Origin: Balneolaceae bacterium
Lineage (GTDB): Bacteria > Bacteroidota > Rhodothermia > Balneolales > Balneolaceae
Reading direction: 5' to 3'
Length of the DNA stretch: 63,448 bases
NCBI GenBank assembly: GCA_007694095.1
Contig: RECI01000168.1
Location: forward strand, 1 to 63,448
The position numbers were made by a program, and so were the translations under genes. Positions 1 to 34,295 of the stretch are shown here, piece after piece. Positions within the stretch are counted from its first letter, which is position 1. Each line of letters begins with the position of its first letter. The notes below the pieces were generated by a model. The model was given only the letters and a program-made list of their open reading frames with translations. It ran no database searches and was not told the origin of the DNA.

Positions 1-55
1 ATGAGTTGTCGGCCCTTCGGGCAAAATTGTCATTGGTCAATGACAATTTTGGGTT
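1..55. repeat. 55-bp dispersed hairpin repeat, copy 1 (cut by window start)
   Basis: These bases are identical to 19446-19500. The copy contains a GCCC-ttc-GGGC hairpin, followed by a perfect 13-bp inverted repeat (AAAATTGTCATTG, 2-nt spacer, complement) ending at base 50. It begins inside the arm of a further hairpin that is complete in the second copy, so the true repeat probably extends left of the window. It lies just past the 3' end of the neighbouring minus-strand membrane gene. The sequence identity is seen directly; its function is unknown. Confidence 0.9.
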
Positions 56-18238: not shown

Positions 18239-19026
18239 AGCTTACGGATTCTTTATCGAAATGCATAAATTACCTGTTAAAACAGGGAATTCCCGAAGTT
18301 GTAGATAGTGTCGTTGTTTTGGGATCCGGGCTTGGAAATTTTGCTGACACCATAAATAATACATTAACAATTCCATACAAAGATATTCCCCTGTTCCCGG
18401 AGGCTTCTGTGGCTGGGCATTCCGGTCTGCTGGTATTCGGTTCTGTTGCAGGCAAAACTGTTCTTGCTTTTTCCGGAAGGTTCCACCACTATGAAGGATA
18501 TCCATTTTCAAAAACAGTTCTTCCAGTTCATATTGCCTCAGCATTTGATGCAAAAAAGCTGGTAATATCGAATGCCGCAGGAGCAATAAATACGAACTTT
18601 AAGGTTGGCGATCTGATGGTTATCGATGATATCGTTCGGCCGTTTCATTCTGTTTCTACAATACCATCTCCAAAATTCCGCTATAACTTATATCAGATTG
18701 CCAACAGAGTTCGAAAAATTGCCGTAGAGTCAGGAATCGATGTTCAACGAGGAAATTATCTCTATGTGAAGGGACCCAACTATGAAACCAGTGCAGAAAT
18801 TCGTGCATTTCGTATTATCGGAGCCGATGTTGTGGGAATGAGTACCGCCCCGGAACTCATCGAAGCCAGCCGTCTTGGTGTTTCTGCCACCGCAATATCG
18901 TTGGTTACGAATATGGCTGCAGGTATTGCCGGCATCAAACTTGACCATTCCGAAGTTAAGCAAGCTGCCGAAAAACGAAAGGATGATTTCGCCAGGCTTG
19001 TTACAGAAATCATCAGATGTTTATGA
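18235..19026 (+). CDS. Purine nucleoside phosphorylase, trimeric type
   Basis: This cytosolic purine-salvage enzyme cleaves purine nucleosides with phosphate. Its 263 residues match the trimeric PNP/MTAP class: VVLGSGLGNFAD (phosphate loop), AGHSGLLVFG, FSGRFHHYEGYP (catalytic His), ISNAAGAIN, GPNYETSAEIRAF (purine-binding Glu), DVVGMSTAPELIEA and SLVTNMAAGI (Asn at the base-binding site). The Asn/Glu pair favours 6-oxopurines such as inosine and guanosine. The start overlaps the MBL gene stop. Its 3' end overlaps the end of a DUF3307 remnant on the opposite strand, so a deletion junction may lie right at its stop codon. Confidence 0.94.
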   Translation: MKLTDSLSKCINYLLKQGIPEVVDSVVVLGSGLGNFADTINNTLTIPYKDIPLFPEASVAGHSGLLVFGSVAGKTVLAFSGRFHHYEGYPFSKTVLPVHIASAFDAKKLVISNAAGAINTNFKVGDLMVIDDIVRPFHSVSTIPSPKFRYNLYQIANRVRKIAVESGIDVQRGNYLYVKGPNYETSAEIRAFRIIGADVVGMSTAPELIEASRLGVSATAISLVTNMAAGIAGIKLDHSEVKQAAEKRKDDFARLVTEIIRCL

Positions 19027-19293
19027 TGATGGATGAGTAAGAAATATTGTCCCGGTTAAAATGACCCAAAACTCGTCGGATATCGTGTAGAACGGTGTTT
19101 CATTCCAGTAATAAAGCCAAACTGTAAACAGAACGGCAAGGTGTGCAAGTTGATCAGCTGCAAACCAATAACTTCGGTTCTTTTCTGTCTGAAAACTCAG
19201 TTTCAAGCCATCGATGATGTAATGTGACATCGCAATTGCCAAAGCCACGGGCCAATTACTTAAATCTAATAATATCAGTAGTATTAACCCAAA
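19021..19293 (-). pseudogene. DUF3307 membrane-protein gene remnant, truncated at both ends
   Basis: About 90 codons resemble the central part of DUF3307 proteins: LSNWPVALAIAMSHYIIDGLKL, then FAADQLAHLAVLFTVWLYYW and FWVILTGTIFLTHPSS, which would run on into a C-terminal domain in an intact gene. The stop falls directly after that segment, beside the purine nucleoside phosphorylase stop. The first helix of the family is missing. Upstream of about 19293 the open frame continues only through hairpin-rich repeat DNA and encodes unrelated residues. I interpret this as a gene remnant created by rearrangement; a short expressed fragment is possible. The family call is from recognition of the motif pattern. 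Confidence 0.65.
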
Positions 19294-19308
19294 AAAGCCG
19301 TTAGGCCT

Positions 19309-19500
19309 TTTTTGCCCTCCGGGCCGACCCCGACAGGGCTGTACGGGACAGGCATTGAAACTCAATGATGTAGCTTTTTTATTTAAAGTAAGAATTCCTG
19401 TGAGTTTCAAAGTCGGGGTTAACCCCGACAACTCATTCGTATAGAATGAGTTGTCGGCCCTTCGGGCAAAATTGTCATTGGTCAATGACAATTTTGGGTT
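19309..19500. repeat. Hairpin-chain repeat region (second copy of 55-bp repeat)
   Basis: Bases 19446-19500 equal bases 1-55. From 19412 the DNA is almost entirely palindromic: GTCGGGGTTAACCCCGAC (19412-19429, perfect 18-bp palindrome); 14-bp arms 19425-19438/19444-19457 around GTATA; GCCC-ttc-GGGC (19457-19467); and 13-bp arms 19468-19480/19483-19495. Near 19311 an inverted relative of part of the repeat (TTTTGCCC-tcc-GGGCCGAC) appears. It separates the DUF3307 remnant from the photolyase gene, whose stop codon starts at its last base. Confidence 0.85.
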
Positions 19501-20963
19501 TAACTGGCGTAGGTATTCAGATACTGCTTTAGTTTAATTTTTTTTCGCGTGTTATCACTGCTCATGTACCGCAATTTTCCAGTAACCGGCCTTTCTTGCC
19601 AGGCGCGGTCGAATCGGCCGAAGCACCAGAATATTCCAGAGTAGCTGTTTGGGTCGCGGCCGTCTATAGCATAGGTATTGTTTAGTTCTATAAGATATCG
19701 GAGGGCTATTTCAGGTTCGGGTGTCCATTCTATCACTTTTTTACCCCATAGCATGCGAAGGTAGTTGTGTATGATTCCATCTCTTCTTAGCTGCATTTGA
19801 GCAGCATTCCATATTTCATCGTGTGTTTGGGCATTTTCGAGTTGTTCGTAGGTGTATGTCCATTCTCTCTTATCATCACGATGTTTATTAAGGGTTTGTT
19901 GTGCCCAGCTGGGAAGACTTTCAAATTTATCGTAATCTTTTCGGTGGTGCGCGAAATGGAATCCTGTTTCCCGCCAGGTTATTACTTCATCTAAAAAACT
20001 GTCTATACTTTGATTACCATTAAAGAATCCATCTGTTGAGCCGTTGTTGTAAGTGATTTTGTCAAGATCCCACCCTTCTGGCTGATGTTTTAGTGCAGCG
20101 CTGATGATTTCATACACCGAGATTTTTCCGAAGTGCAGCCATGGGCTAAGGTTGCTTGTCTTTTTTTCATCGGGGTCGTTTCTTTTTTCATCGTATTCCA
20201 GCAGGCTGTTTTGGATAAATTGCCCTAACATTCCAAGTGCTGCCTGCCTGCCACCGTGCCAGTTAATGGGTTTAACATCGTGGTTGATTTTTAAACCGGA
20301 AATAAACTTCGTAATGTTGGCTGGTCCTTTTTTTCTTTCGGGTAAATTTTCGTGGAATGACCCGGGCAGGTTTATTGAATCCCTGTTTTTCAGATCATCG
20401 AGCGGGTTCTTTTTCGGTGGATTGGTAAAGGCTTCTACAAAGTTTTTTTGCATTGTTTTTCGGAACAGGTATGCACTGTAGGGATCTTTTTCAGTGATAC
20501 CGAGTGGTATTAATCCATTACTGTCAACAGTAATGTATGGCAGTTCCATTTCCTGGGAATATGTTTCGTTCCGTTTTCTCATTATAAAAACGGGATATTC
20601 ATCAGTTACCAATACCGATGCTTTTGAGGTTAAATTTTTTAACAGCACCTCATATTGACCGGTTTCCTGCTCTGCAAATGAAATGTAGTTCAGCTTTTGC
20701 TGAGTTGCATATTCAAGGTGTTCTTCCATTCCCTGCATCACGAAGGTGTGAGTGCGTGCTGTTGCCCATGGATAATCACATGAGAAAGCTTCAAGAATTA
20801 GAAGTGGTTTATTGATCTTGTTTGCCCAACCTACAGCATATTCCAGGGCAAAATTGTAATGAAACCGGCGGTTAATTTGCATCCAGTACAGGACGTATTC
20901 ACCATTAGCATTGGGTTCCTGATTATTCCGTTTAAAAACACGGTAACTATTTAAGTTTTTCAT
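19500..20963 (-). CDS. Class II deoxyribodipyrimidine photolyase (DNA photolyase)
   Basis: This 487-residue flavoprotein repairs UV-induced pyrimidine dimers using light. The N-terminal antenna domain opens with GEYVLYWMQINRRFHYNFALEYA, the class II hallmark. The C-terminal FAD/DNA-binding domain shows LSPWLHFGKISV, SFLDEVITWRETGFHFAHH, the DKREWTYTYEQLENAQTHDEIWNAAQ block and RMLWGKKVIEWTPEPE, then the class II segment NNTYAIDGRDPNSYSGIFWCFG. Light-driven repair, together with carotenoid genes elsewhere in the window, fits a sun-exposed habitat. Transcription runs into the hairpin-rich repeat, which could act as its terminator. The class assignment is firm; activity is inferred from the family. 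Confidence 0.93.
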   Translation of the reverse strand: MKNLNSYRVFKRNNQEPNANGEYVLYWMQINRRFHYNFALEYAVGWANKINKPLLILEAFSCDYPWATARTHTFVMQGMEEHLEYATQQKLNYISFAEQETGQYEVLLKNLTSKASVLVTDEYPVFIMRKRNETYSQEMELPYITVDSNGLIPLGITEKDPYSAYLFRKTMQKNFVEAFTNPPKKNPLDDLKNRDSINLPGSFHENLPERKKGPANITKFISGLKINHDVKPINWHGGRQAALGMLGQFIQNSLLEYDEKRNDPDEKKTSNLSPWLHFGKISVYEIISAALKHQPEGWDLDKITYNNGSTDGFFNGNQSIDSFLDEVITWRETGFHFAHHRKDYDKFESLPSWAQQTLNKHRDDKREWTYTYEQLENAQTHDEIWNAAQMQLRRDGIIHNYLRMLWGKKVIEWTPEPEIALRYLIELNNTYAIDGRDPNSYSGIFWCFGRFDRAWQERPVTGKLRYMSSDNTRKKIKLKQYLNTYAS

Positions 20964-32912: not shown

Positions 32913-33021
32913 AATTCCATGGCAATACTGCACAACCAATTTTAACCCAACTTTAACCCTAACCAATCACATATCTGATTTGTCCGGTTTATAGATTCGA
33001 TACATTAGGGATTGACACAGT

Positions 33022-33077
33022 ATCCAGCATCCAGCATCCAGCATCCAGCATCCAGCATCCAGCATCCAGCATCCAGC
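33022..33077. repeat. Tandem repeat, 8 x 7 bp (ATCCAGC)
   Basis: Eight perfect copies of ATCCAGC run from 33022 to 33077. They lie in the 263-bp spacer between the exosortase and the DUF58 gene, about 100 bp before the DUF58 start. Such short pure repeats are prone to slipped-strand copy-number change, which could alter promoter spacing. No function is visible. A second eight-copy heptamer repeat lies on the other side of DUF58. Confidence 0.95.
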
Positions 33078-33175
33078 TAAAACAAACTTATTAACTCAGG
33101 GTTTAATTGTTGTTAATTGAAATAAAGGTGATATTTTTTCCATTTGACATGTGATTCAGTTAATATTTCATACTT

Positions 33176-34239: not shown

Positions 34240-34295
34240 TCACTTTTCACTTTTCACTTTTCACTTTTCACTTTTCACTTTTCACTTTTCACTTT
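34240..34295. repeat. Tandem repeat, 8 x 7 bp (TCACTTT)
   Basis: Eight perfect copies of TCACTTT occupy 34240-34295, followed by a T-run. The repeat lies in the 447-bp spacer (34049-34495) between the DUF58 gene and the convergent M23 peptidase gene. Apart from this repeat I see nothing assignable in that spacer. Short frames running through the repeat are artefacts of its periodicity. Confidence 0.95.

What the first reader, a model, noticed from the sequence alone, without database searches (positions are those of the whole stretch)
19412..19500. Chain of four hairpins, with 55 bp duplicated at the window start
From 19412 to 19495 almost every base belongs to one of four successive palindromes (18-bp perfect palindrome; 14-bp arms with 5-nt loop; GCCC-ttc-GGGC; 13-bp arms with 2-nt loop). 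The last 55 bp recur exactly at 1-55. An inverted, diverged piece (TTTTGCCC..GGGCCGAC) appears near 19311. Such a compact multi-hairpin repeat could be a REP-like or non-autonomous mobile element, a structured RNA, or a recombination substrate. The copies border a membrane gene on one side and a gene remnant on the other, which hints at rearrangement.
Basis: partly seen in the sequence, partly recalled or inferred. Interest (0 to 1): 0.62.

Follow-up and report, generated by a model that had tools for sequence, protein, structure and literature searches.

The report
Multi-hairpin jumping DNA in soda-lake bacteria
The hairpin chain is the right-hand part of a small, gene-less jumping DNA element that has copied itself to nearly 30 places in this soda-lake bacterium and to many places in its relatives, leaving a 5-letter footprint at each landing site; this is a previously unlabelled family of a familiar kind of mobile DNA.

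Summary
The hairpins are real, but the unit is larger than described. It is one element, 19288-19498 (211 bp), running from CCCAAAA to TTTTGGG. The "inverted, diverged piece" at 19311 is its own left part. The host genome holds about 29 loci, and relatives in one genus (and a second genus of the same family) hold many more. Of 37 complete copies, 31 are flanked by identical 5-bp repeats of consensus WTNAW, while shuffled pairings never gave more than 14. This is the footprint of transposition. The element codes for nothing. Its interior is a set of hairpin arms that vary, with compensating changes, and are lost or swapped between copies. The 68-bp form is, letter for letter, the long form minus the stretch between its two GCCCnnnGGGC hairpins. 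The copy at 1-53 is a contig edge broken inside another insertion. In the window the element lies where relatives carry a SatD gene and the first quarter of a DUF3307 gene, so the rearrangement hint is right. I call it a new MITE-like family of Balneolaceae. It is not a REP (it makes target duplications and no RAYT gene is flanked by it) and matches no known RNA family. The transposase was not found; an IS1380-type enzyme is a weak candidate.

The parts
19288..19498 (+). complete element, 211-bp long form (CCCAAAA...TTTTGGG)
   Evidence: alignment of 37 complete copies; covariance-model hit with exactly these ends
19283..19287 (.). left target-site copy, ATTAA
   Evidence: differs by one base from the right copy
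19499..19503 (.). right target-site copy, TTTAA (overlaps the photolyase stop codon)
19288..19294 (+). left terminal inverted repeat CCCAAAA
   Evidence: conserved in nearly all complete copies
19492..19498 (+). right terminal inverted repeat TTTTGGG
   Evidence: conserved in nearly all complete copies
19291..19313 (+). hairpin arm 1, AAAAAAGCCGTTAGGCCTTTTTT
   Evidence: sequence; C-G to U-A compensatory pair in relatives
   Evidence: sequence
19329..19353 (+). 25-bp extra block found only in one subfamily (also in contigs C12, C119, C231, C300)
   Evidence: alignment
19325..19415 (+). long arm CGAC..ATTGAAACTC...GAGTTTCAA..GTCG, often lost in shorter copies
19412..19429 (+). 18-bp palindrome GTCGGGGTTAACCCCGAC joining two arms; contains GGG-TTAA-CCC
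19425..19457 (+). hairpin arm with three pairs showing changes on both sides between species
   Evidence: helix 5
19457..19467 (+). second small hairpin GCCC-TTC-GGGC; with 19314-19324 it bounds the stretch missing from 68-bp copies
19467..19496 (+). right hairpin arm, CAAAATTGTCATTG/CAATGACAATTTTG
   Evidence: sequence
1..53 (+). right end of a second insertion, cut by the contig start
   Evidence: the window is contig C159 from base 1
19021..19287 (-). remnant of a DUF3307 membrane-protein gene, about residues 54-143 of 240; homology begins at the element edge
19500..20963 (-). class II-type deoxyribodipyrimidine photolyase, apparently intact (best match is NCBIfam phr2, below that model's strict cut-off)

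Best explanation
It is a member of a non-autonomous, MITE-like transposon family of Balneolaceae. Shown: the element runs from CCCAAAA to TTTTGGG, is present in many copies, codes for nothing, is flanked by 5-bp duplications of WTNAW, and carries interchangeable hairpin arms. Inferred: a DDE-type transposase supplied in trans binds the short ends, cuts the target with a 5-base stagger at AT-rich WTNAW sites and inserts the element, leaving a repeat on each side. Inferred: slippage or recombination between the repeated internal hairpins deletes or swaps arms, giving the 68-, 117- and 187-bp forms, which then move on by themselves. The arms are probably tolerated because they fold compactly in transcripts or as cruciform DNA, not because they serve the host.
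For: About 29 distinct loci in the host genome; copies in relatives of the genus and in a second genus with 31 matches in one genome. Identical 5-bp flanks in 31 of 37 complete copies, the other six with 4 of 5, against at most 14 perfect in 2000 shuffles; the repeat length peaks sharply at 5. Different duplicated words rule out a fixed extension of the element: TTAAA, TTTAA, TTGAA, TTCAA, TTAAT, TTTAT, ATTAT, ATGAA, ATCAA, ATAAA, TTGAT. 68-bp copies equal the long form minus the stretch between the two GCCCnnnGGGC hairpins, with both loop versions present. Seven pairs change on both sides against 2.4 in shuffles. Relatives have the locus without the element.
Against: No autonomous partner was found: DDE_Tnp_1, Y1_Tnp and IS1380-type genes in element-bearing genomes do not carry these ends, and the richest genome outside the genus has no IS1380 match. 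The terminal repeat is only 7 bp. No movement was observed directly. The window copy itself has flanks that differ by one base.
Confidence: 0.9

Rival explanations
1. REP/BIME-type repeats spread by a RAYT (Y1 transposase) acting on hairpins in single-stranded DNA.
For: Many palindromes; RAYT-type genes occur in every element-bearing genome tested.
Against: Target duplications of exactly 5 bp; no fetched RAYT locus has element sequence at its flanks; no GTAG or CGTC tag as defined in PMC3733652.
Confidence: 0.04
2. A conserved structured RNA (regulatory or small RNA) that happens to be repeated.
For: Strong fold, z -7; compensatory changes above shuffles.
Against: Both strands fold equally; no Rfam match; no preferred gene neighbourhood (7 convergent, 6 divergent, 12 tandem); arms are lost or swapped freely. 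Palindromes can also be kept perfect by template switching, without selection on RNA.
Confidence: 0.05
3. The same element, mobilised specifically by an IS1380-family transposase (Pfam DDE_Tnp_1_4).
For: IS1380-type elements in these genomes end in CC(T/C) and several make 5-bp duplications; one in genome G011 has ends CCCAGATTACGCA flanked by TTAAA and TTTAA. ISEcp1 of this family makes 5-bp duplications (PMC2887853).
Against: Only CCCA is shared with the ends of the element. No IS1380 match in genomes G076 and G062, which carry it.
Confidence: 0.25
4. Host-beneficial bidirectional transcription terminators kept by selection.
For: Arm 1 is a stem with a T-run on both strands.
Against: No excess of convergent gene pairs; the consensus scan reports no terminator-like site.
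Confidence: 0.05

Closest known systems
MITEs of bacteria, e.g. BrickBuilt and MITE464/MITEPgRS of Porphyromonas gingivalis (PMC4596501)
   Same: Short, non-coding, multicopy, inverted terminal repeats, variable interior, presumed to be moved by a transposase in trans
   Different: Those have IS5-type ends (GAGAC...) and irregular duplications; here the ends are CCCAAAA and the duplication is a strict 5-bp WTNAW
BOX, RUP and SPRITE repeats of Streptococcus pneumoniae (PMC3049150)
   Same: Small interspersed repeats with extensive secondary structure, judged parasitic; BOX is modular (own knowledge)
   Different: No sequence relation was tested; here modules are hairpin arms between fixed ends and the duplication is 5 bp
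GTAG/CGTC-tagged REPs (PMC3733652)
   Same: Palindromic extragenic repeats in many copies
   Different: REPs are 20-40 bp with unpaired tags; GTAG types are linked to RAYTs; here target duplications and 68-290 bp
IS1380-family insertion sequences (ISEcp1, PMC2887853)
   Same: CC-type ends and 5-bp duplications in the related genomes
   Different: Carry a transposase; end sequences otherwise differ from this element

Membership tests
[quoted passage not shown]
   68-290 bp; interior is hairpins only
[quoted passage not shown]
   CCCAAAA/TTTTGGG, 7 bp, in nearly all complete copies
[quoted passage not shown]
   31 of 37 perfect at exactly 5 bp; shuffle maximum 14
[quoted passage not shown]
   about 29 loci in G000, 31 matches in G076
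[quoted passage not shown]
   none found with PF01609, PF01797, PF13701 or end-pattern searches; draft assemblies lose such repeats
REP / RAYT system | 20-40 bp palindrome with GTAG or CGTC tag | tested here: not met
   unit is 68-290 bp with paired CCC...GGG ends
REP / RAYT system | RAYT gene flanked by the repeat | tested here: not met
   RAYT loci fetched show no element ends
IS1380-derived MITE | Terminal repeats matching an IS1380 element of the genome | tested here: not met
   only the first 4 bases agree with the nearest one, in G011
Known structured RNA family | Rfam match at gathering score | tested here: not met

The most novel reading that the evidence does not exclude
A mobile element built as a kit: fixed 7-bp ends around freely reassorting hairpin modules, where repeated hairpins drive the exchange, moved by a transposase of a kind not yet linked to WTNAW targets. 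Module content, not sequence, would be what the transposition or the host's tolerance requires.
Probability: 0.25. Interest if true: 0.55.

Novelty: new member of a known kind. Interest (0 to 1): 0.36.

Why it matters
It adds a well-delimited, apparently undescribed mobile repeat family to Balneolaceae, explains why assemblies of these soda-lake genomes break at these points, and offers a natural series (68, 117, 129, 160, 187, 211 bp) for testing which hairpins a mobile element needs. It also shows the element at the edge of a lost SatD/DUF3307 gene pair, a possible case of gene loss linked to the repeat.

Tried and rejected
Rfam at gathering and permissive thresholds: nothing but a chance microRNA score. 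Viral contigs, phages, plasmids: no match. Autonomous partner by end pattern in own and relatives' genomes: the non-family hits in the own genome look like chance coding sequence; those of the relatives were only partly examined. Partner by transposase families DDE_Tnp_1, Y1_Tnp, IS1380: none with CCCAAAA ends. Terminator function by gene orientation: no bias. Group II intron at the C300 junction: no Rfam support. The idea that 1-55 is a local duplication was dropped, as it is a contig edge. Papers on WTNAW or TTNAA targets: none found.

Full report
OBSERVATION. The hairpin chain at 19412-19496 and its 55-bp repeat at 1-55 are exactly as read, apart from one arm being 14 rather than 13 bp. The stretch folds much better than shuffles on both strands, z -7.1 and -6.9. 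The 18-bp palindrome, allowing three mismatches, is expected zero times in shuffles of the window.

THE REAL UNIT. Searching the host genome (G000, 4.56 Mb draft, the window being contig C159) gave 20 or more further places for the right half and a separate set for the left half. Setting all copies in register shows one element whose ends are CCCAAAA and TTTTGGG. In the window it is 19288-19498. The "inverted, diverged piece" near 19311 is its own left internal hairpin. After merging contig edges that share a flank (C246 with C300, C311 with C62) there are about 29 distinct loci: eleven short copies (67-69 bp in those measured), five complete long copies (186 or 211 bp) and a dozen or so truncated ones. 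Several copies lie at contig ends, including 1-53 of the window, because near-identical copies break the assembly.

TRANSPOSITION FOOTPRINT. Of 37 complete copies with both flanks readable, from the host, relatives in its genus and records of a second genus, 31 have identical 5-bp flanks and the other six agree at four of five positions. Random re-pairing of flanks gave at most 14 perfect matches in 2000 rounds. The match count by length is 11, 1, 0, 1, 31, 1, 0, 0 for lengths 1 to 8, so the duplication is exactly 5 bp. The left flanks give the consensus WTNAW, with T and A invariant at positions 2 and 4. Words such as ATGAA/ATGAA, TTGAT/TTGAT and ATTAT/ATTAT show that this is a duplication and not part of the element.

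ANATOMY. The long form has a closing CCC/GGG, arm 1 (AAAAAAG.CGTTAG.CCTTTTTT), GCCCnnnGGGC, a long arm CGACATTGAAAC...GTTTCAATGTCG, the GTCGGGGTTAACCCCGAC junction, an arm CGACAA.TCATT...AATGA.TTGTCG, a second GCCCnnnGGGC, and the right arm. An alternative fold pairs the two GCCC-type hairpins with each other. On 13 distinct long copies, seven pairs change on both sides (shuffles 2.4) in 12 cells (shuffles 2.7), and 95% of cells pair. The alternative fold scores slightly less. Compensatory change fits selection on structure, but template switching that perfects palindromes would give the same, so I do not claim an RNA function.

MODULARITY. The 68-bp form equals the long form with the stretch between the two GCCCnnnGGGC hairpins removed; both loop types, TTC and TCC, occur. 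One of the two 117-bp copies fits a deletion at CGAC repeats. In G013 and in the second genus the small hairpin is replaced by GCACCGaaagcattCGGTGC, and the arm order varies in copies of 81, 129, 136, 160 and 199 bp that keep the ends; these were picked by requiring near-matching flanks, so they are illustration and not independent evidence. Whether long or short came first is open.

DISTRIBUTION. Nine of 58 nearest genomes match, all in the own genus. A covariance model adds a second genus of the family, with 31 matches in G076 and 5 in G062; one weak hit in a third genus (G091, E 3e-4) was not verified. Nothing convincing was found in the rest of a 195-genome sample of the class. Named public records with the exact core are Balneolaceae MAGs CSSed165cm_514 and CSSed165cm_265. 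Nothing was found in viral contigs, phages or plasmids.

THE WINDOW LOCUS. In at least ten relatives, photolyase is followed in the same direction by a SatD-family gene and a DUF3307 gene of about 240 codons. In the window, photolyase ends in the element's right target copy, SatD is gone, and DUF3307 survives only as residues 54-143, starting at the element's left edge. The two target copies differ by one base (ATTAA, TTTAA). Either two insertions recombined and removed the genes between them, or one insertion landed in an already damaged locus and one target copy mutated; the data do not decide. The remnant is also truncated at its other end, away from the element.

HOW IT PROBABLY WORKS. Shown: multicopy, no coding capacity, fixed ends, 5-bp duplications, arm loss. 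Inferred: movement by a transposase in trans. I looked for it among DDE_Tnp_1, Y1_Tnp and IS1380 genes and by end pattern without success. The nearest match is an IS1380-type element in G011 with CCCAGATTACGCA ends and TTAAA/TTTAA flanks, but only CCCA is shared, and the second genus has no IS1380 match, so this remains a weak candidate.

GENE CONTEXT. Insertions lie between convergent (7), divergent (6) and tandem (12) gene pairs, with five in small ORFs, from a simple ORF call. There is no sign of selection for a terminator role.

COMPARISON AND VERDICT. It meets the tested MITE features except a known autonomous partner. It fails the REP/RAYT features. It works like other bacterial miniature transposons. 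I rate it a new member of a known kind with a neat modular interior.

Noticed in passing
L212, L213, L215-L218, L221, L223-L225, L231, downstream of photolyase: A SatD-family gene plus DUF3307 gene pair sits behind photolyase in about ten relatives, preceded by repeated TATCG...CGATA words that look like operators; other relatives lack the pair, so it is a variable cassette.
   Followed up: partly
L102 1500-1794 (G007:C145): The right hairpin of an element copy is interrupted by DNA whose minus-strand reading (AARSVANHRPHYREYYEQKLAEGK) resembles, from memory, the C-terminus of IS110-family transposases; Pfam gave no match.
   Followed up: partly
L063 and L064 (G000:C231, C119): Two independent left-half copies end at the same place, GGGGTTAA in the middle of the 18-bp palindrome, which suggests that the long form may once have been two abutting elements.
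   Followed up: no
L089 and L097 (G007:C221, G013:C18): 280-290 bp versions carry another repeat-like block (CTATCCAAAAAG...CTTTTTGGACAG) in place of the middle arms, with TTAAA duplications, and abut a second GGGTTTAACCC-type word.
   Followed up: no
L052 after position 1640 (G000:C300): An element copy is broken right after the GTCGGGGGTTAACCCCGAC palindrome by unidentified DNA without Rfam or Pfam match.
   Followed up: partly
L190 949-2346 (G011:C70): IS1380-type element with CCCAGATTACGCA ends, its transposase split into two frames, flanked by TTAAA/TTTAA.
   Followed up: partly
window 33018-33087 and 34240-34295: Short tandem repeats (CAGCATC-type 7-mer and TCACTTT 7-mer).
   Followed up: no
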